Shown here piece by piece: positions 3,547 through 37,100 of a DNA stretch of 64,000 bases. The notes beneath the pieces are model-generated. The model searched no databases, was not told the origin of the DNA, and was given only the letters and a program-made list of their open reading frames with translations. This DNA is from an uncultured Marinococcus sp. (lineage in GTDB: Bacteria; Bacillota; Bacilli; Bacillales; Marinococcaceae). The translations under genes were made by a program, and so were the position numbers. Location: NCBI RefSeq assembly GCF_947493875.1, contig NZ_CANLSU010000006.1, positions 124,001 to 188,000 on the forward strand, in the 5' to 3' direction. Within the stretch, counting starts at the first letter, position 1; each line of letters starts with the position of its first letter.

Positions 3547-3575
3547 TATACGCGTAAACTCTCGTAATCGTTTCA
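3547..3575 (-). promoter_or_regulatory. ECF sigma-W-like promoter upstream of short nfeD
   Basis: The reverse strand reads TGAAAC-N17-CGTATA, about 70 bases before the start codon. TGAAAC and CGTA are the -35 and -10 elements of Bacillus sigma-W promoters (usual spacing 16-17). In B. subtilis, sigma-W drives both flotillin/NfeD operons. Confidence 0.7.
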
Positions 3576-27746: not shown

Positions 27747-28649
27747 TTAATATTCGTCCTCGCGATATCCGTTCTCCCGAAGCAGATACGCACTGTTTCT
27801 CCAGTCTTTTTCCACCTTCACCCAAAGCTCTACAAACACCTTTGAGCCAAGCATTGACTCAATATCTGCCCGGGCCCGCTGCCCGATTTCCTTGAGCATC
27901 GACCCCTGCTTGCCGATAATAATGCCTTTTTGAGTCGGGCGTTCAACAACAATAGTAGCTGCCACATACACCGCACCGTTTTCCCGTTCCTTCATTTCAT
28001 CGATAACGACGGCGAGCGAATGCGGAACTTCTTCGCGAGTCAGCTGCAGGGCTTTTTCGCGGATCAGTTCACTCACGATAAACCGTTCCGGGTGATCGGT
28101 GACCTGATCTTCCGGATAAAACTGCGGTCCCTCCTCGAGGTATTTGGTAAGTTCTTCGAGAAGCGTCGTCACGTTATTTCCGTTCAACGCAGAAACTGGC
28201 ACGACCTCGGCAAAATTATACCGTTCGGAATAGCTTGCAATCACCTTGAGCAGCTCGTCCGGATGGACTTTATCGATTTTATTAACGATTAAAAATACCG
28301 GCGTGTCTGTCCGCTTCAGTTTTTCAATAATATATTCCTCACCGGGGCCATATGATTCTGACGCATCGATCAGGTATAAAATAATATCAACATCGTTCAG
28401 TGTCTGCAGAGCAGCACGAACCATAAAATCGCCCAGCTTGTGCTTTGGTTTATGAATGCCCGGAGTATCGATAAAAACAATCTGGGAATCTTCTGTCGTG
28501 TAGACTCCCTGGATTTTATTTCTTGTTGTCTGTGCTTTATCACTCATGATCGCAATCTTTTGGCCAAGCACCTGATTCATTAATGTGGACTTTCCCGCAT
28601 TGGGCCGCCCGATTAGGGCGGCAAAACCGGAATGATACTCTTCACTCAT
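27747..28649 (-). CDS. era: GTPase Era
   Basis: A 300-residue GTPase that binds the 3' end of 16S rRNA in 30S assembly. G1 [10 protein letters not shown]2 TTRNKIQG, G3 DTPG ([15 protein letters not shown]), G4 NKID, and a C-terminal KH domain ([22 protein letters not shown]). Length is normal. ATG with AAGAGGGAAAATA. It is transcribed with cdd, dgkA and ybeY, the conserved Bacillus order. Confidence 0.97.
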
Positions 28650-28678
28650 TATTTTCCCTCTTCTTTCCTGCTTTCATA

Positions 28679-29074
28679 CTATAAATCATCCGGGCCGAAT
28701 GCTCCCGGGAGCAGCTCTTCCATCGTCGTTACTTTTATGTCCCCCTGCAGGTTACCTAAAACAATCCGGGCGTCCTTCGGCAGAAACTCAGAAAGCACCT
28801 GCCGGCAGGCGCCGCACGGAGCGACCGGTCCTTTCGTATCGGCGATGACAGCTACCATTTTTCCGCTTCGCATGCCTGTACGCAGCGCACTGAATACGGC
28901 TGTCCGTTCTGCACAGTTGCTTAACCCATACGAGGAGTTCTCAATATTACATCCTTCGTACCACTCACCGTCCTCTCCTACAAAGACCGCTCCTACCGGA
29001 AAGTTGGAATACGGGACGTACGCTTGTTCTCTCGCCTGTTTAGCCCGTTCAAGCAGTTCGTTTTCTATAGCCAA
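28679..29074 (-). CDS. cdd: Cytidine deaminase
   Basis: A 131-residue tetrameric-type cytidine deaminase of pyrimidine salvage. The zinc site is seen in NCAERTAVFSAL and PCGACRQVLSEF; substrate residues are in NFPVGAVF and GCNIENSSYGLSNC. The start is TTG at 29074 (MAIENELL) with AAGGGGG seven bases ahead. Between dgkA and era in one operon. Confidence 0.96.
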   Translation of the reverse strand: MAIENELLERAKQAREQAYVPYSNFPVGAVFVGEDGEWYEGCNIENSSYGLSNCAERTAVFSALRTGMRSGKMVAVIADTKGPVAPCGACRQVLSEFLPKDARIVLGNLQGDIKVTTMEELLPGAFGPDDL

Positions 29075-29090
29075 TGTATTTCCCCCTTTG

Positions 29091-29474
29091 TCAGCTCAGC
29101 CATTCCCATAGGAAAGGCATAAAAATCATCACACCGATGATAACAGCAAATACAGCATAAATGAGCACCGCGCCGGCAGCAATGTCCTTGACTTCTCCCG
29201 CGGTTTTATTCCATTCCGGAGACACCAGATTTACCAGGCGCTCGAGCGCGGAATTGACCATTTCGAGTACGAGCATGCCGGCAATTGCCAGCAATAGAAC
29301 GGTCCACTGCCATAAAGCGAGCCCGCACAGCCAGCCCAGAAGGACAGCTGCGAGGCCAAAAAAGACATGGAAGCGCATATGACGCTCCTCCCGAAAGGCA
29401 AGGCGGATGCCTTTTCCGGCAAACACAAACCCGTCCCTCCAGCGCCTGGGCAGCGATTTATCGCGGTAATCCAT
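29091..29474 (-). CDS. dgkA: Diacylglycerol/undecaprenol kinase family protein
   Basis: A 127-residue integral membrane kinase with three helices. The family signature is EMVNSALERLVNL..PEWNKTAGEVKDIAAGAVL, with the catalytic glutamates and Asp in place. In Gram-positive bacteria this family phosphorylates undecaprenol, feeding the lipid carrier of cell-wall synthesis. It overlaps the end of ybeY by 17 bases. Confidence 0.93.
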   Translation of the reverse strand: MDYRDKSLPRRWRDGFVFAGKGIRLAFREERHMRFHVFFGLAAVLLGWLCGLALWQWTVLLLAIAGMLVLEMVNSALERLVNLVSPEWNKTAGEVKDIAAGAVLIYAVFAVIIGVMIFMPFLWEWLS

Positions 29475-29919
29475 ACGCTTCCAGGATCCTTTCCTGACGC
29501 GAAAACATTGTTTGTTCTTCTTCTTTATTCATATGATCATAACCAAGCAGATGCAGCAGGCCGTGAACGGCCAGAAAGCCCAGCTCTCTTTCAAACGAAT
29601 GACCATACTCCTCTGCCTGCTCCCGGGCTTTAGGAACGCTTATAATAATGTCTCCGAGCAGATTCGGAATGCCTTCGGCCTGCGGCTGAATCTCATCGTC
29701 ATTCAACGCAAATGAAATCACATCAGTCGGCCGGTCGATTTCCCGGTATTCCCTGTTGACCGCCTGAATCATCTCGTTGTCCACAAAACTCACAGATACC
29801 TCCGAGCCGTCTACGACTCCTTCTTCTTCACATGCGAACTGCAGGATGTTCTGCACCAGCTCCCAATGCTTCGGTTCCACTTGTTCCGTTTCGTCTACCA
29901 TATCCACTTCAATACTCAC
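29458..29919 (-). CDS. ybeY: Endoribonuclease YbeY (16S rRNA maturation)
   Basis: A 153-residue zinc-dependent rRNA endonuclease. The H-x3-H-x5-H metal motif is HGLLHLLGYDH near the C-terminus; upstream are VDNEMIQAVNREYREIDRPTDV and GDIIIS. Starts with GTG 29919 after GGGGTGGACAGGC. It follows phoH after 16 bases; the pgpH (yqfF) gene that separates phoH and ybeY in B. subtilis is absent. Confidence 0.95.
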   Translation of the reverse strand: MSIEVDMVDETEQVEPKHWELVQNILQFACEEEGVVDGSEVSVSFVDNEMIQAVNREYREIDRPTDVISFALNDDEIQPQAEGIPNLLGDIIISVPKAREQAEEYGHSFERELGFLAVHGLLHLLGYDHMNKEEEQTMFSRQERILEAYGLPR

Positions 29920-29935
29920 GCCTGTCCACCCCTGA

Positions 29936-30940
29936 CTAGTTGTTTGTTGGTTTGTCCGGCCGGTTCAACGTACGCTTTGGATCGCCTTCCTCCTGTTCGT
30001 ACGCATCAAGAATCTGCTGCACCAGTGTATGCCGCACAACATCCGTGGCCTCCAGGTAAACGAATCCAATATGATCGATGTTTTTTAATATACGCGCCGC
30101 CACCTTCAGACCTGACTGCTGGCCTTTTGGAAGATCAATCTGGGTAAGATCCCCATTAACGATCATTTTTGAACCAAACCCGAGCCGTGTTAAAAACATC
30201 TTAATTTGTTCTTTCGTCGTATTCTGTGCTTCATCAAGAATAACAAAAGCATCGTCGAGCGTCCGGCCTCTCATATAGGCAAGGGGAGCTACTTCGATCG
30301 TGCCTCTCTCCATGAGCCGCTGTGTATGCTCCGCCCCAAAAATATTATGCAGAGCGTCATACAGCGGACGCAGGTATGGGTCCACTTTTTCTTTCAGGTC
30401 GCCCGGAAGAAACCCGAGGCTTTCTCCAGCCTCTACCGCTGGACGGGTCAGCACAATCCGCTTTACCCGTCCCTCCTTTAAAGCATTGACCGCCATCACA
30501 ACTGCCAGATAGGTTTTACCTGTACCTGCCGGACCAACGCCAAATATCATATCTTTACGGCGGATCTGGTCGATATATTCCTTCTGCCCTAAGGTTTTAA
30601 TCATGACCGGCTTGCCTTCGGCGTTTACAGCAATCTGCTCCTGGAATAAATCTTCAAGCTTTTCAAGCTTTCCTTCTTCGGCCAGCTGCGCTGCATAGAC
30701 AACGTCCCGTTCAGAGATCCGCACCCGTTTTTTCAAAAGCCTGGCCAAAGCCTCAATCACTTCTTCCACCAGTGCTGCCTGCTTTTCATTTCCTTCCACG
30801 ATCAGTGAGCCGCCTCTGGTAATGATCGAAACGTCCAGCTTTTCTTCAAGCCGCTCAATGTGCACATCATTCGGACCAAACAGCTGCTGTATGTCATTCA
30901 TTTCATTCACTTGTAATTCTAGCGTTTTCTTTTCGGTCAA
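29936..30940 (-). CDS. phoH: PhoH family ATPase
   Basis: A 334-residue protein with an N-terminal KH-like domain (GGSLIVEGNEKQAALVEEVIEAL) and a PhoH P-loop ATPase domain: Walker A GPAGTGKTYLAVVMAV, then TRPAVEAGESLGFLPGDLKEK, Walker B FVILDEAQNTT and MIVNGDLTQIDLP. Thought to act on RNA together with YbeY, which it adjoins. The start is TTG at 30940, with AAGGAG eleven bases ahead (spacing slightly long). Its upstream gap holds the terminator of the previous gene. Confidence 0.94.
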   Translation of the reverse strand: MTEKKTLELQVNEMNDIQQLFGPNDVHIERLEEKLDVSIITRGGSLIVEGNEKQAALVEEVIEALARLLKKRVRISERDVVYAAQLAEEGKLEKLEDLFQEQIAVNAEGKPVMIKTLGQKEYIDQIRRKDMIFGVGPAGTGKTYLAVVMAVNALKEGRVKRIVLTRPAVEAGESLGFLPGDLKEKVDPYLRPLYDALHNIFGAEHTQRLMERGTIEVAPLAYMRGRTLDDAFVILDEAQNTTKEQIKMFLTRLGFGSKMIVNGDLTQIDLPKGQQSGLKVAARILKNIDHIGFVYLEATDVVRHTLVQQILDAYEQEEGDPKRTLNRPDKPTNN

Positions 30941-31071
30941 TATAGCTCAGTCTCCTTGAGTATAATATCATATCCTTGCTGTTATCAGTTTTTTCGTTAG
31001 TATGCTAATTCTACTCTACCACCACGCTGAGGGTGTTGCAAAAAATAGCAGACATTTTAAACATTTAAGGC

Positions 31072-31103
31072 AAAAAAAGAACCTGATCCGAAGATCAGGC
31101 TCA
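31072..31103 (-). terminator. Intrinsic terminator after the yqeZ-floA-yqfB-like operon
   Basis: On the reverse strand, stem GAGCCTGATC / GATCAGGTTC with a TTCG tetraloop and T7. It overlaps the stop codon of the 209-residue gene and separates this operon from phoH. Confidence 0.93.
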
Positions 31104-31727
31104 CTCATTACTGCTTTTTTTAGTGGAACGATGCGGCTCAATTCTCTCACGCGACATTGTTGACTGCCGCTGGTAAGGATAACCGCTGCGCCTTGTGACC
31201 GGTGGGCTTAGTACCTCTGCCCATACGAGCCCGTTGGCTGCTTCTTTTTTGTTTATCGACCGCGGGTTTCTCCGCGCTCCGCCAATTTCTCCGTCTGACG
31301 TGATGCTTCCACGTTCAGCAGACTGCCGCGAAGCACGCTCAAGACGCTGACTTGCATTTTTCTTTTGCTTTTGAAGCTCTTCACGGCGCTTTTCATATTC
31401 CTTTAAAGCACTGCTTTTATTCTGAGGCTCATCTGACTCTTCCTTGTACAGCTCTGACTCTGCTTCCGGCACCCGGCGCGTTGGATGATTGCCAGGGCTT
31501 TCGGAGGGATCATTCTGAGGACGATTCGGCGTGTTTTCCTTGCGGGCATTTTCAAACTCTTCAAACAGGTCCTCAAGCTTTCCGAACGCTCCGCGCCGTC
31601 TCGAATCGCTGTCGCTGCCCTCCTGCTGCTGGCTGCTGTCCCCCCGGCCGAGAAACGTAATCAAACCACCGAAGAGCAGCAGTAAAATCCACAGGTTATT
31701 AAACACTAGTTCAAACAGCTGCTCCAT
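31101..31727 (-). CDS. Small membrane-anchored hydrophilic protein of unknown function (yqfB position)
   Basis: A 208-residue protein I do not recognise by sequence. One membrane helix lies near residues 10-28 (LWILLLLFGGLITFLG); the rest is charged, low in order and rich in Ser, Arg, Glu and Asn, with a helical stretch at about 105-140. A Trp-containing segment close to the C-terminus (NGLVWAEVLSPPV) stands out as a likely conserved docking element. It is the third gene of the sigma-W-like operon yqeZ-floA, the place of B. subtilis yqfB. The start is the ATG at 31727, nine bases after AAGGTG; the GTG at 31739 overlaps that site. Confidence 0.7.
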   Translation of the reverse strand: MEQLFELVFNNLWILLLLFGGLITFLGRGDSSQQQEGSDSDSRRRGAFGKLEDLFEEFENARKENTPNRPQNDPSESPGNHPTRRVPEAESELYKEESDEPQNKSSALKEYEKRREELQKQKKNASQRLERASRQSAERGSITSDGEIGGARRNPRSINKKEAANGLVWAEVLSPPVTRRSGYPYQRQSTMSRERIEPHRSTKKSSNE

Positions 31728-31761
31728 CGCTTCATTCACCTTCTTCTACGGACAAAGTCCC

Positions 31762-32772
31762 TTATTTATCGGTGTGTGGACGGTTGTAAGGCCCGTTTTG
31801 ATCGTCGTCTTTACCGGATTTACTGATCGACTCACGCATATCCGTATCAGACATTACGTTCTGGATATTCATATAATCCATGACCCCAAGGTTTCCGGAG
31901 CGCAGTGCTTCTGCCATTGCCATTGGCACTTCTGCTTCGGACTCGGTAACTTTCGCACGCATTTCTTCTACGCGTGCTTTCATTTCCTGTTCCTGGGCTA
32001 CAGCCATGGCACGGCGTTCTTCGGCCTTCGCCTGGGCGATGTTTTTGTCTGCTTCCGCCTGGTCTGTCTGCAGTTCTGCACCAATGTTTTTGCCAATGTC
32101 AATATCGGCAATATCGATGGATAAAATCTCAAAGGCCGTACCTGAATCCAGGCCTTTGGAAAGCACTGTCTGCGAGATGCTATCCGGATTTTCCAACACT
32201 TTTTTATGGTTTTGAGAAGAACCAATCGTCGAAACAATACCTTCACCTACACGGGCGATAACGGTATCTTCACCGGCACCCCCGACCAGGCGGTCTATGT
32301 TTGCCCGCACGGTGATTCTTGCTTTTGCTTTTACTTCAATGCCGTCCATTGCGACACCGGCAATAAACGGTGTTTCAATAACTTTCGGGTTAACACTCAT
32401 CTGTACAGCTTCCAATACATCACGCCCGGCAAGGTCAATAGCCGCACAACGCTCAAATGTAAGTTCAATATTGGCACGCTGGGCAGCGATTAGTGCGTTG
32501 ACCACACGGTCTACGTTACCGCCAGCCAGATAGTGGCCTTCAAGCTTGTTCAACTCAATATCGAGTCCGGCTTTTTCTGCTTTGATCATCGGATTTACTA
32601 CTCTCGACGGAATAACCCTCCGGAGCCGCATACCGACAAGCTGGAAAATACCTACTTTCACCCCTGCGGCAAGCGCCGAAATCCAAAGCGCAACCGGAAC
32701 AAAGGTGAATAAAATAACGAGCGCTATTAAAATAATAGCTAATACAATAACGAGGCCTATATCAATTCCCAT
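31762..32772 (-). CDS. floA: Flotillin-like protein FloA
   Basis: A 336-residue SPFH-domain scaffold of functional membrane microdomains. N-terminal membrane helix (residues 5-28), SPFH domain (about 30-210, [24 protein letters not shown]), then a coiled coil rich in Ala and Glu ([28 protein letters not shown]). The ATG is one base from the end of yqeZ, its NfeD partner, in one operon. In B. subtilis FloA affects membrane fluidity, signalling and cell-wall synthesis. Confidence 0.96.
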
Positions 32773-32773
32773 G

Positions 32774-34126
32774 TCATGATTCCCTTCTTTCTTTGTTAGA
32801 ATAAGGCTTTACTACAACACGCGTGCCTTCTACACGCACTACCTGCACAGCGTCTCCGCGGTCGAGGTAGCGGCCGTCTGAAACAACATCAATTTTTTCC
32901 CCGTCAATTTCTGCCGCACCGGTCGGATGCAATGGGGTTAATGCCGTTCCTTCTCTGCCCAATAAGTCCGTTCTGCCTTCATTTGATACATATCCATCCT
33001 TTGAAGAAAAAGTGTCCTGCAGCACCAGCTTTTTCATCGGCCCCCGTTTTCCAAAGCCCACCACCATGACTGCTGCTGCGATGATGGCGGCTACAGCTGC
33101 CAGTACAACGGAAATCGCCATGACGGAAATAGAAAACGAGGACATAAACAGGCTGCCAACGACTGCCCCTATACCTAATATACCAAAAATTCCAAAACCA
33201 GGAACAAAGAATTCTATCAGCAGCAGGAGCAGGCCGACGCCAAACAACAGCAGGCCTTCGAAACCAGCAAAGCCGGCAATCATATGACCGAAAAAGAAAA
33301 GTCCTAAGGATGCGAGACCGATACCTCCGAAAATTCCAAATCCCGGTGAAAATACTTCAAGTATTAGGCCGATCATGCCAACGCTGAGTAAAATCGGAAT
33401 CACGTAAGGACTCGTCACCCACCTTGCGACCTGCTCGGCTGCGCTGATATCTGCTTCTTCCACTGCAGCACCGCCCAGGTTCATCTGACTGAGAAGATCA
33501 TCCCTGCTGTCGGCAATGTACTCCGCATAGCCCACCTCATCAGAGGCTGCTTCCGATGCCGTAAGCGTTAACAGTTCACCTTCTCCGGCACGATAATCCG
33601 GCAGTTTAACTCCAGGATCCGCCATTGCTTCTGCATACACCGGGTCTCTGTCATTTGATTCAGCTGCATTGACCATATTAGACACCCAGGCCGACTGAGC
33701 CTTGTCGGATGCTGCATTCCCTGATCCGTCAATAACCTGGGCAGCTCCCATTTCTGTTTCAGGCGCCATGGCAATTTCGTCAGCGCTCAAGGCCAGAAAC
33801 GCTCCTGCTGACATGGCCTGATCCGTTACATATGCTGTAGTTGGAATAGATGTGCCGTTGATAATTGAAGCAATCTCCCCTGCGGCATCCACTGCGCCTC
33901 CAGGTGTGTCCAGTTCAAAAATAATCCTATCGGCATCAGCTTCTTCCGCCTCCTGAACCGACCGTTCCAAAAATGCAGCCATTCCCTGCTCCACAGTCTG
34001 TTCAACCGGGATAACATATACGGTTTGATTTTCACCGGCCCCCTCCACAGACGCGGGAAGCCAGGCAGCTGTCATGAAAAGCACGGCAAGAAAAACGGAC
34101 AACCATCTGCTTTTTCTTTGCTCCAC
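32774..34126 (-). CDS. yqeZ: NfeD-family membrane-bound serine protease-like protein YqeZ
   Basis: A 450-residue long NfeD protein. Order: signal peptide (residues 1-30), ClpP-like serine protease domain ([35 protein letters not shown], with the Ser of the S-K dyad in MSAGA), four to five membrane helices (about 240-360) and a C-terminal OB-fold NfeD domain. It pairs with FloA. Starts with GTG at 34126 after GGGAGGGGGG. The sigma-W-like promoter at 34173-34199 lies just upstream. A shorter paralogue without the protease part is at 2829-3476. Confidence 0.93.
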
Positions 34127-34172
34127 CTCTATCCCCCCTCCCGTTCATTAGTTATATGTCTATACTCTTATG

Positions 34173-34199
34173 TACGAGGATAAAGATAAAAGCGTTTCA
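34173..34199 (-). promoter_or_regulatory. ECF sigma-W-like promoter of yqeZ-floA
   Basis: The reverse strand reads TGAAAC-N17-CGTACA, about 50 bases before yqeZ. It has the same elements and spacing as the promoter at 3547-3575 before the short nfeD gene. Known biology: yqeZ-yqfA-yqfB is a sigma-W operon in B. subtilis. Confidence 0.72.
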
Positions 34200-34241
34200 A
34201 TTTTTTCCCGTTTATTTCAGCAGGAAGACTCGCTTATGTTT

Positions 34242-34284
34242 AAAAAAAGAGACCGAACCGGAACTAAACCCTGATTCGATCTCT
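34242..34284 (-). terminator. Intrinsic terminator after yqeY
   Basis: On the reverse strand a 15-bp stem with G-T pairs and one mismatch (AGAGATCGAATCAGG paired with TTCCGGTTCGGTCTCT), then T7. It closes the rpsU-yqeY unit. Confidence 0.85.
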
Positions 34285-34297
34285 AGCTTTCTTATTA

Positions 34298-34744
34298 TCA
34301 AGAAGATAAATGCTTTTTCACTAATTGATTTACCTGGGAACCGTCCGCTTTTCCGCTGATTTTAGGCATCACCGCAGACATCACCGTTCCCATATCTTTC
34401 ATCGAAGATGCATTCTCCTCCTGAATGGTTTCTTTCACAATCGATTCCAGTTCTTCATTCGATAAAGGAGCAGGAAGATATTCAGATATGACGTCCATTT
34501 CGAACCTGGTCTGTTCTGCTAAATCTTCCCGTCCTGCGCTTTCAAACTCATGGAGGGAATCTTTTCTTTGTTTCATTTCGCGGTTTAAAACCGCTGTTGC
34601 TTCGCTTTCATCAAGCTCTTTATTGAGCTTGATGGCTTCATTCTGCATCGATGCCCGCAGGCCTCTGATGACATTTAAACGCTGTTTTTCCTTGTTTTTC
34701 ATTGCTGACTTCATGTCACTGCTTAAACGATCCATGAGTTCCAA
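34298..34744 (-). CDS. yqeY: GatB/YqeY domain protein
   Basis: A 148-residue helical protein related to the tRNA-binding tail of the amidotransferase subunit GatB. Marks: SDMKSAMKNKEKQRLNVIRGL at the N-terminus and VMSAVMPKISGKADGSQVNQLV at the C-terminus. The function of the free-standing form is unsettled. The start is TTG at 34744, eight bases after AAGGTG; the alignment with the family (MELMDRLSSDM) favours it over the ATG at 34735. Downstream of rpsU, the usual pair. Confidence 0.93.
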   Translation of the reverse strand: MELMDRLSSDMKSAMKNKEKQRLNVIRGLRASMQNEAIKLNKELDESEATAVLNREMKQRKDSLHEFESAGREDLAEQTRFEMDVISEYLPAPLSNEELESIVKETIQEENASSMKDMGTVMSAVMPKISGKADGSQVNQLVKKHLSS

Positions 34745-34764
34745 GGATGCAGCACCTTCTTTAC

Positions 34765-34938
34765 TTAAAACTTACGTTTTCTAGCTTCTTCGCTTTTCTT
34801 CTTACGACGAACACTAGGTTTTTCGTAGTGTTTGCGTTTTTTCACTTCAGCCATTGTCCCTTCTTTGGAAAGGCTACGCTTAAAACGGCGAAGAGCGGCA
34901 TCAATATCTTCATTCTTTTTCTTTCTTGTCTCTGCCAT
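34765..34938 (-). CDS. rpsU: 30S ribosomal protein S21
   Basis: A 57-residue basic protein read directly from the reverse strand: begins [19 protein letters not shown], includes [16 protein letters not shown] and ends RKRKF. It matches ribosomal protein S21 in length and charge. ATG with GGAGGGAATCAC upstream. It lies 20 bases before yqeY and behind a strong promoter at 35019-35047. Confidence 0.96.
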
Positions 34939-35018
34939 GTGATTCCCTCCCTCCGAACAACCAATCTAACTAATATATGAATAAAGACTATTACTCAAAT
35001 ACTAGCCATTTGGTAAAT

Positions 35019-35047
35019 AGTATAAAGCATCTATGCCAAAAAATCAA
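35019..35047 (-). promoter_or_regulatory. Sigma-A promoter of rpsU-yqeY
   Basis: TTGATT-N17-TATACT on the reverse strand, 80 bases before rpsU and between it and deoC. Confidence 0.75.
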
Positions 35048-35068
35048 CGAGCGCGCAGGCAGAGATTG

Positions 35069-35737
35069 TCAGTAGTTTTCACTTGAGGTTTCGCCCTGCA
35101 GGATTTTCACCCCAGAGCTTGCACCGAGCCGGGAAGCTCCGGCCTCAATTAATGCAAGAGCAGTCTGGCGGTCCCTGACTCCACCGCTCGCTTTTACGCC
35201 GGCACGGTCGCCTACCGTCTCTTTCATCAGACGCACATCTTCAATCGTAGCTCCTCCCCCGTTGAACCCGGTGGATGTTTTCACAAAATCCGCTCCGGCT
35301 TCAACGGCAAGGCTGCAGGCCGTCTTCTTCTCTTCATCCGTTAACAGCGCTGTTTCTATTATCACTTTCACCAGCGCCTCCTGATTTGCAGCCTGTACGA
35401 CCGCTTCAATGTCTGCCCGGACCAGATCATCTTCCCCGCTTTTTAAGGCGCCAATGTTAATAACCATATCAACTTCCTTCGCTCCGTTGGCGATGGCATT
35501 TTTCACTTCAAATGCTTTTGTTTCAGGATTTGTGGCACCGAGCGGAAAACCAATCACTGTGCAGACAAGCACCTCGGAGCCTTCCAGCTCTTTAGCTGCA
35601 AACGGCACCATCGCCGGGTTAATGCATACAGACTTGAAATGATTATCTTTGGCTTCCGTAGTGATACGTTTTATATCTTCAAATGTGGTTTCCGGCTTCA
35701 GCAGGGTGTGATCAATATATTGCGCGAGATCAGCCAT
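35069..35737 (-). CDS. deoC: Deoxyribose-phosphate aldolase
   Basis: A 222-residue class I TIM-barrel aldolase of nucleoside catabolism, splitting deoxyribose 5-phosphate into glyceraldehyde 3-phosphate and acetaldehyde. The Schiff-base lysine is in VKVIIET and the second lysine in [24 protein letters not shown] also fits. ATG with GGAGGAGAAAGT. It is last in the gene string after mtaB, at the site where B. subtilis has yqeW. The cytidine deaminase gene is 6 kb away. Confidence 0.95.
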
Positions 35738-35765
35738 ACTTTCTCCTCCAGTTCAACTGTTATAG

Positions 35766-37100
35766 TTATACAAGCGTTGCTGTATCATGGTCGAGCACGC
35801 GTACAAACTCCCCTTCGTTCAATGGATAGCCTGCGTTCGTAATTTTCACACGCACAATTTCACCACGCCATTCCGGATTCGCAGGGAAACGTACCTTTAT
35901 ATAATTCGTCGAATAGCCGACAAAGTAGCCAGGTTTTTCTTTGTCTTCTTCTTCCGGGATTACTTCCACAACTTCATTTTCAAAACGCGAAGCATACTCT
36001 TTTGCGAGTTGATTGGAAAGCTCAATCAGACGGTGCACCCGGTCATTTTTTTCTTCATCCTCAACCTGATCACTCATTTTAGCAGCCGGGGTGCCGGTAC
36101 GTTTCGAATACGGAAACACGTGCAGCTCTGAGAAACGCTGGTCCCGGATAAAATCGTATGTCTGCTGAAATTCTTCCTTCGTTTCTCCCGGGAAGCCTAC
36201 AATCACATCTGTGGTGATGGCGCATTCCGGCAGGGCTTCGCGCAGTTTTTCCAGACGCTCCGCATAAAATTCCACGCTGTATTTTCTTCTCATTCTTTTA
36301 AGCACGGTATTCGAGCCAGCCTGAAGCGGCACGTGCAGATGATTTACTACTTTGTTCGAGCTTCGGAGCACGTCAATTACTTCATCGGTAATCTGACTTG
36401 CTTCTATGGAAGAAATACGGATCCGTTTTAATCCATCAATAGTTTCAAGGTCCCGGAGCAGCCCTGCGAGATTGTAGTCTTTCAAATCTTCACCGTAGCC
36501 GCCTGTATGAATGCCTGTAAGCACCAGTTCCTTGTAGCCTTTGTCAACCAGCTGTTCCGCCTGGTGCATGACCTCTTCCGGATTTCTCGAACGGAGCAGG
36601 CCGCGGGCCCACGGGATGATGCAGAAGGTACAGAAATTATTGCACCCTTCCTGAATTTTCAGCGACGCTCTCGTGCGATCGGTAAACTCCGGTACATCGA
36701 GTTCTTCGTACACACGGTTTTTCATAATGTTGCTTACACCGTTAATCGGTTCCCGGGAGACCGTGTATTCTTCAATATAGTCGAGCATTTTTTTGCGGTC
36801 CTGCGTGCCGACAACAATGTCGACGCCGGGGATATCCATGATCTCTCCCGGGGAGGTCTGGGCATAGCAGCCGGTGACGCATATGATCGCATCCGGATTT
36901 TTACGCACCGCGCGCCGGATCACCTGACGGCTTTTTTTATCTCCGGTGTTGGTCACCGTACAGGTGTTGATGACATAGACGTCTGCGGTCTGATCGAATT
37001 CCTTTCTTTCATAGCCGTCATTTTTAAACAACTGCCATATGGCTTCCGTTTCGTAATGGTTTACTTTACAGCCAAGAGTATGAAACGCCACTGCTCTCAT
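35766..37100 (-). CDS. mtaB: tRNA (t6A37)-C2 methylthiotransferase MtaB
   Basis: A 444-residue radical-SAM methylthiotransferase that makes ms2t6A37. Order: N-terminal UPF0004 domain with cluster cysteines (TLGCKVNHYET, INTCTVTN, VTGCYAQT), radical-SAM CNNFCTFC, and a C-terminal TRAM domain. The start overlaps the rsmE stop by four bases. Part of the string dnaJ-prmA-rsmE-mtaB seen in Bacillus. Confidence 0.95.
   Translation of the reverse strand: MRAVAFHTLGCKVNHYETEAIWQLFKNDGYERKEFDQTADVYVINTCTVTNTGDKKSRQVIRRAVRKNPDAIICVTGCYAQTSPGEIMDIPGVDIVVGTQDRKKMLDYIEEYTVSREPINGVSNIMKNRVYEELDVPEFTDRTRASLKIQEGCNNFCTFCIIPWARGLLRSRNPEEVMHQAEQLVDKGYKELVLTGIHTGGYGEDLKDYNLAGLLRDLETIDGLKRIRISSIEASQITDEVIDVLRSSNKVVNHLHVPLQAGSNTVLKRMRRKYSVEFYAERLEKLREALPECAITTDVIVGFPGETKEEFQQTYDFIRDQRFSELHVFPYSKRTGTPAAKMSDQVEDEEKNDRVHRLIELSNQLAKEYASRFENEVVEVIPEEEDKEKPGYFVGYSTNYIKVRFPANPEWRGEIVRVKITNAGYPLNEGEFVRVLDHDTATLV

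What the first reader, a model, noticed from the sequence alone, without database searches (positions are those of the whole stretch)
31101..31727. Unknown third gene of the flotillin operon with a conserved-looking C-terminal Trp motif
A single-helix membrane protein with a long disordered charged region and an ordered-looking NGLVWAEVLSPPV element near the C-terminus. Co-transcription with FloA and an NfeD protein suggests a client or adaptor of membrane microdomains. Disordered linker plus short hydrophobic motif is a common docking design.
Basis: inference. Interest (0 to 1): 0.5.

Follow-up and report, generated by a model that had tools for sequence, protein, structure and literature searches.

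The report
YqfB, a FloA flotillin companion gene
This small membrane protein is the window's version of YqfB, an unstudied protein whose gene sits right behind that of the bacterial flotillin FloA in most of the FloA-bearing Bacillota genomes examined here and which shares one short motif near its C-terminal end, suggesting an overlooked third part of the flotillin machine.

Summary
The ORF (ATG 31727, 208 aa) follows nfeD and floA and has an N-terminal membrane helix, a variable linker and the conserved C-terminal element. The operon has an exact sigma-W-type promoter element (34173-34199) and a terminator (31079-31102). By synteny and motif it is YqfB, third gene of the B. subtilis yqeZ-floA-yqfB operon, reported to protect against sublancin. 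In 61 genomes (own plus 60 relatives) a 28-residue motif profile finds one strong match in each of the 59 with floA, always just behind floA, and none in the two without (22 of the 59 supplied profile rows). It extends to same-phylum genomes outside the class. The Trp is not the conserved part (125 of 241 sequences); the core is (G/A)hhx(S/A/K)E(I/V)L(G/D)xP(R/K). Some lineages keep only a 52-73 aa ORF without membrane helix, so the motif looks like the essential part. The 52 members scanned fit no Pfam or NCBIfam family convincingly. Motif divergence tracks the FloA tail and NfeD C-terminus: weak, post-hoc evidence for docking on the cytosolic FloA-NfeD assembly; AlphaFold gave none. The gene is known but uncharacterised; its wide conservation was not found in the papers searched.

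The parts
31101..31727 (-). YqfB orthologue, 208 aa, third gene of the nfeD-floA-yqfB operon (alternative GTG start at 31739)
31647..31715 (-). predicted single transmembrane helix (FELVFNNLWILLLLFGGLITFLG); charged residues follow it, so the tail is probably cytosolic (inference)
   Evidence: sequence; hydrophobicity scan of 279 unique family ORFs; AF2 of the B. inaquosorum homologue, helix 8-27
31323..31415 (-). charged linker segment SSALKEYEKRREELQKQKKNASQRLERASRQ, probable helix by analogy with the homologue
   Evidence: alignment; coordinates; AF2 of the homologue, helix 61-102
31182..31259 (-). conserved C-terminal motif SINKKEAANGLVWAEVLSPPVTRRSG (profile A2, E 4.9e-8; this sequence is one of the 62 profile rows)
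31762..32772 (-). floA, flotillin-like protein FloA
   Evidence: Pfam PF12127 550.5 bits, NCBIfam PRK13665.1 575.5 bits
32774..34126 (-). nfeD, long NfeD1b type (NfeD1b N-terminal domain, membrane domain, C-terminal partner-binding domain)
   Evidence: Pfam PF25145, PF24961, PF01957
34173..34199 (-). sigma-W-type promoter element TGAAAC-N17-CGTA, 46 nt before the nfeD start
   Evidence: same element in 57 of 63 named operons with usable starts, 0 of 63 and 0 of 78 in control stretches
31079..31102 (-). terminator-like stem-loop and T run after the third gene

Best explanation
The ORF is YqfB, the third product of a sigma-W-type nfeD-floA-yqfB operon (orthology about 0.97). It is a near-constant companion of FloA in Bacillota (about 0.9). 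Most likely mechanism (about 0.5): the N-terminal helix anchors it in the membrane, the flexible linker spans the cytosolic face, and the C-terminal helix-plus-PPR motif docks on the cytosolic end of the FloA-NfeD assembly (FloA coiled coil and C-terminal tail, NfeD OB domain). There it would stabilise, gate or tether the assembly during envelope stress such as antimicrobial peptides. Shown here: synteny, motif conservation, linkage to floA, the promoter element, purifying selection. Inferred: topology, docking site, effect.
For: Motif profile: 59 of 61 genomes have one strong match, E 6.1e-5 or better, all 59 behind floA on the same strand; the two without are the two without floA (22 of the 59 are profile rows). 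Class: motif at E 0.01 or better in 185 of 210 floA genomes and in 1 of 89 without floA, that one a 15-residue partial match. Phylum sample (7 genomes shared with the class sample): 112 of 139 floA genomes have a match, 111 of 115 places lie behind floA, and one genome with two floA genes has a motif behind each. Read directly: 309 of 314 floA loci have some profile match behind floA, 17 of them weak (E above 1e-3) and 5 of those with E of 1 or worse. Operon in B. inaquosorum: nfeD, floA, yqfB, then YqfC-, YqfD- and PhoH-like ORFs, the B. subtilis order given in PMC3498285. Sigma-W element shared. Short forms without a membrane helix keep the motif. In 120 independent pairs motif divergence tracks the FloA tail (partial r 0.33, p 2e-4) and the NfeD C-terminus (0.28, p 0.002), not the FloA N-terminus (0.10, p 0.26) or body (0.07, p 0.42).
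Against: AF2 of a FloA-YqfB read-through chain gave the motif helix less confidence (about 79) than YqfB alone (about 90); FloA itself was poorly modelled (pTM 0.37). The Bacteroides FloA keeps the conserved C-terminal tail without a motif gene behind it, so the tail is not conserved for YqfB alone. The covariation is weak, rate-sensitive, and the tail window was chosen after seeing the top pairs; in the raw coupling list the NfeD columns are richer in top pairs (40 of 1680) than FloA columns (56 of 7920). 25 of 210 class and 27 of 139 phylum floA genomes miss the profile: 7 of the 25 and 10 of the 27 were read by eye, and most of these show a divergent motif, but L313 shows none and L263 only part. 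Forms without a membrane helix contradict a strict membrane-tether role.
Confidence: 0.55

Rival explanations
1. YqfB is a co-regulated client or adaptor: the motif binds another envelope-stress protein, and FloA only provides the location and the operon.
For: No binding to FloA was shown here; AF2 gave no docking; a floA mutant alone is cited as more sublancin-sensitive (PMC4409396, passages), so the operon phenotype need not involve YqfB.
Against: Linkage is to floA itself across a phylum sample, also where the following genes differ (YqfD absent in the window's genus) and where a second floA exists (G437). No second motif match with E below 0.15 in 61 genomes.
Confidence: 0.25
2. The motif is an amphipathic or lipid-binding segment: the C-terminus returns to the membrane at ordered domains and marks or shapes them.
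For: Hydrophobic GIIW-EIL stretch with basic residues after it; Trp in 125 of 241.
Against: Pro in 238 of 241, Glu in 225 of 241 and the exchange of Trp for L, M, F or Y fit a protein groove better than an interfacial Trp (inference); the partial correlation with FloA tail and NfeD is not expected.
Confidence: 0.12
3. The gene is a sporulation accessory kept with yqfC/yqfD.
For: In many relatives YqfC- and YqfD-like genes follow directly.
Against: The window's genus and one sister genus lack YqfD (0 of 5 genomes; 16 of the 16 other genomes searched have it) yet keep the motif gene. A Listeria record has the motif gene too (that Listeria does not sporulate is recalled).
Confidence: 0.03

Closest known systems
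Bacillus subtilis YqfB (sigma-W operon yqeZ-floA-yqfB)
   Same: Same position behind nfeD and floA, same sigma-W-type promoter element, N-terminal membrane helix, linker and C-terminal motif, as compared with Bacillus inaquosorum L179 (VVQGIVLGEVFGPPRAKKPHH).
   Different: The window protein is longer (208 vs 138 aa), has W where L179 has L, and has 31 residues after the quoted element; yqfC and yqfD do not follow. The B. subtilis 168 sequence itself was not seen.
FloA-NfeD flotillin complex of Staphylococcus aureus (PMC11222466, passages read)
   Same: The same first two operon genes; a Staphylococcus-like genome read here (L106; identification by inference from genome size and protein, no name given) has the motif ORF behind floA, ending in NGVIWQEILNKPKQL.
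   Different: The passages read describe a FloA/NfeD system with NfeD as first and flotillin as second gene; 'yqfB', 'third gene' and 'hypothetical' do not occur in the main text.
SPFH5-NfeD1b operons (PMC2636767, passages read)
   Same: FloA (YqfA) with a ClpP-motif NfeD; the paper mentions a gene of unknown function in the Thermus operon.
   Different: No family, motif or conservation of that third gene is described in the passages read.

Membership tests
YqfB (third gene of the FloA operon) | Directly behind floA on the same strand, after nfeD | tested here: met
YqfB (third gene of the FloA operon) | C-terminal motif (G/A)hhx(S/A/K)E(I/V)L(G/D)xP(R/K); the window has V for the last R/K and S for G/D | tested here: met
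   profile hit E 4.9e-8 at 31182-31259 (this sequence is one of the 62 profile rows)
YqfB (third gene of the FloA operon) | N-terminal membrane helix and variable linker | tested here: met
   Window sequence and alignment; 259 of 279 unique family ORFs pass a Kyte-Doolittle threshold in the first 60 residues
YqfB (third gene of the FloA operon) | Sigma-W control of the operon | tested here: inconclusive
   Exact sigma-W-type element at the right place; no expression data for this organism
YqfB (third gene of the FloA operon) | Role in sublancin resistance | not testable with these tools
   Operon-level reports in PMC3498285 and PMC8144471 (passages)
Any Pfam or NCBIfam family | Score above the curated cut-off | tested here: not met
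   Window protein below every cut-off; 52 members scanned as alignment A4, window included, gave only scattered weak matches, best E 1.6e-4 (cut-offs are shown only for the first member)
FloA-NfeD complex subunit | Physical binding to FloA or NfeD | tested here: inconclusive
   Covariation weakly for; AF2 no support

The most novel reading that the evidence does not exclude
Bacterial flotillin FloA in Bacillota is a three-component machine. YqfB is its overlooked third subunit, and a motif of about 20 residues, docking where the FloA tail and the NfeD OB domain meet, is the only part that is not lost; membrane helix and linker are optional.
Probability: 0.5. Interest if true: 0.7.

Novelty: new member of a known kind. 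Interest (0 to 1): 0.52.

Why it matters
In the papers whose passages were read, FloA-NfeD is treated as a two-gene system for membrane microdomains and protein stabilisation, and the cryo-EM work of PMC11222466 co-produced FloA and NfeD. A third gene that stays with floA through a phylum sample, under the same promoter, and is reduced in places to little more than one motif, is a strong genetic hint of a missing component. It turns the open question of how flotillins are assembled or recruited into point-mutant and pull-down experiments in B. subtilis.

Tried and rejected
Rejected: sporulation role (YqfD absent from the window's genus while the motif gene stays). Rejected: Trp as the key residue (125 of 241). 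Rejected: weak Pfam/NCBIfam matches (Nuf2, OAD_gamma, RNase Y, TraI relaxase and the like); they are below cut-off where a cut-off is shown, and I take them for coiled-coil or membrane-helix noise. No Rfam match at gathering score in 28600-36000. No Protein Data Bank sequence matches the motif profile up to E = 1.

Led nowhere: the two AlphaFold jobs. Motif confidence is not raised by adding FloA, FloA was poorly modelled, and no model coordinates were in the Python box. FloA outside Bacillota could not be sampled beyond one Bacteroides record whose downstream stretch was read (L253); a Parabacteroides hit was not opened.

Paper searches: yqfB+yqeZ, QmcA+YbbJ, FloA+NfeD+operon+flotillin, sublancin/sigW/yqeZ (two of three), floA+yqfB, four S. 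aureus locus tags (any of them; the tags are recalled), flotillin+FloA+sublancin, NfeD+flotillin+'third gene'. None of the passages read in the eight papers opened (PMC3498285, PMC8144471, PMC11222466, PMC5718613, PMC8581546, PMC2636767, PMC4409396, PMC12563154) describes the motif or its conservation; the other listed papers were seen as listings only, and the library lacks most subscription journals. The paper cited for sublancin resistance (Butcher and Helmann 2006) was not read.

Full report
Observation. The ORF at 31101-31727 (minus strand, ATG, 208 aa) lies directly behind floA (31762-32772) and a long-type nfeD (32774-34126). An AAGGTG 9 nt before the ATG favours that start over the GTG at 31739 (read). 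An exact sigma-W-type element TGAAAC-N17-CGTA lies 46 nt before the nfeD start, and a terminator-like stem directly follows the ORF, so the three genes look like one transcription unit. Among the four genus members dN/dS is below 0.15 in all six pairs, and dN in the motif stretch is 0 to 0.018.

Identity. The window protein matches no Pfam or NCBIfam family above its cut-off. A scan of 52 members (alignment A4, window protein included) found only scattered weak matches, best E 1.6e-4; cut-offs are shown only for the first member. A single-sequence search of 61 genomes (own plus 60 relatives) found matches at E 0.1 or better in 42; in the 30 matched loci taken further the ORF follows floA directly. 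A Bacillus FloA query fetched 80 named loci, the best 80 of 580 confirmed. In Bacillus inaquosorum (a close relative of B. subtilis; recalled) the order is nfeD, floA, a 138-aa motif protein, then ORFs that look like YqfC, YqfD and PhoH (the last three names are given by resemblance). This is the yqeZ-yqfA-yqfB-yqfC-yqfD operon of B. subtilis, a core sigma-W operon whose first three genes are labelled 'resistance against sublancin' in PMC3498285 (passages read); PMC8144471 cites the same for yqeZ-floA-yqfB (passages read), and PMC4409396 cites higher sublancin sensitivity of a floA mutant (passages read). A 2025 paper still lists yqfB among conserved proteins of unknown function (PMC12563154, passages read). 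Of the 80 named loci, 63 have usable nfeD and floA starts; 57 of these carry the same promoter element within 350 nt before nfeD, against 0 of 63 stretches inside floA and 0 of 78 after yqfB.

Anatomy. The parts are an N-terminal hydrophobic helix, a variable charged linker with a predicted long helix, and a C-terminal motif. In 241 non-redundant sequences the motif columns are G or A (236), two hydrophobic residues, W (125) or L, M, F, Y (109 together), S, A or K (216), E (225), I or V (239), L (206), then after two columns P (238), R or K (213). Rows dropped before that count: 314 loci, less those with no match or motif E above 1 (298 kept), less those without a found NfeD C-terminus (286 kept), less near-identical FloA (241). 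Part of the divergent variant seen in one family (such as EGMKWALIFSPPRAKMPY) is lost in this way, so conservation is somewhat overstated. The window itself has S and V where most have G and R or K. Of 279 unique ORFs, 259 pass a fixed hydrophobicity threshold at the N-terminus; several of the other 20 are borderline, and some may have a wrong start. Clear exceptions are ORFs of 52-73 aa with the motif and no membrane helix (L111, L135, L146, L124, L285); in L111, L135 and L146 the start codon overlaps the floA stop codon.

Linkage to floA. A profile of 62 motif segments, 28 positions, was run on three sets. Relatives: 59 of 61 genomes have one strong match each (E 6.1e-5 or better), all 59 behind floA on the same strand; the other 16 matches have E of 0.156 or worse; the two genomes without a match are the two without floA. 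Twenty-two of the 59 supplied profile rows, 37 did not. Class: floA in 210 of 299, motif at E 0.01 or better in 186, both in 185; the one motif-only genome has a 15-residue partial match in a 40-codon frame. The 25 floA-only genomes are 24 from two families plus one other; the seven of them read by eye carry a divergent motif. Adjacency in the class set was read from loci, not counted for all 185. Phylum (7 genomes shared with the class set): floA in 139 of 199, motif in 113, of which 112 have floA; 111 of 115 places lie behind floA. Of the four others one is on a different contig of a fragmented genome and three are matches to 11-15 profile positions. Twenty-seven floA genomes have no match; ten of these were read by eye, and all but L313 (none) and L263 (part) show a motif-like segment. 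G437 has two floA genes, each with its own motif gene.

Direct reading. Of 314 floA loci (60 fetched through the third gene itself and one more placed by it; the other 253 chosen by floA; several genomes occur more than once), 309 have a profile match behind floA, 17 of them weak (E above 1e-3, five of these with E of 1 or worse), and 5 have none (L263, L279, L298, L313, L253). L279 and L298 look motif-like by eye. The Bacteroides record has a nucleoside phosphorylase gene instead.

Mechanism. In 286 paired operons (effective number 160) the top couplings between motif and FloA fall mostly in the FloA C-terminal tail. In the window FloA 305-322, chosen after seeing that list, ten columns of entropy 0.8 or more couple more strongly with the motif than 74 others (p 9e-5), while the same columns show no excess with NfeD (p 0.40). 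In the raw list the NfeD C-terminal columns hold 40 of 1680 and the FloA columns 56 of 7920 of the top 1% pairs, so NfeD is at least as good a candidate. In 120 disjoint closest pairs, motif divergence keeps a partial rank correlation with the FloA tail (0.33, p 2e-4) and with the NfeD C-terminus (0.28, p 0.002), but not with the FloA N-terminus (0.10, p 0.26) or body (0.07, p 0.42); NfeD against tail gives 0.17, p 0.056. These are weak, rate-sensitive signals. Against the reading, the Bacteroides FloA keeps the same conserved tail without a motif gene behind it, and AlphaFold gave the motif helix no extra confidence when FloA was present (about 79 against about 90 alone). Passages of PMC11222466 describe NfeD binding to the flotillin tentacles. 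If YqfB docks there, it would be a third part of that assembly. I hold docking at about 0.5.

Novelty. The gene is known by name in B. subtilis. Its wide conservation, its motif and the short forms were not found in the passages read or the listings of the searches named under Tried and rejected, in a library that lacks most subscription journals.

Noticed in passing
window 29936-31101 and G000-G004: The sporulation gene yqfD is absent from the window's genus and one sister genus (0 of 5 genomes) while the 16 other genomes searched have it; phoH follows the floA operon directly, which hints at loss of sporulation in this lineage.
   Followed up: partly
window 3549-3575, minus strand: A second exact sigma-W-type element TGAAAC-N17-CGTA; the gene behind it was not examined.
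   Followed up: no
G437:C17:446036-447479 and G437:C18:281897-283320: A genome with two floA genes, one with an internal stop, each followed by its own motif gene.
   Followed up: partly
L111, L135, L146, L124, L285: YqfB reduced to 52-73 aa, without a membrane helix; in L111, L135 and L146 the start codon overlaps the floA stop codon.
   Followed up: partly
L109 (G127): The motif ORF starts about 350 nt behind floA, after a stretch without an obvious gene.
   Followed up: no
L252 (NZ_CP154629.1): A 2.63 Mb record labelled as an Acetoanaerobium plasmid carries the floA operon and has only 4 annotated features in this collection; it looks like a mislabelled chromosome.
   Followed up: no
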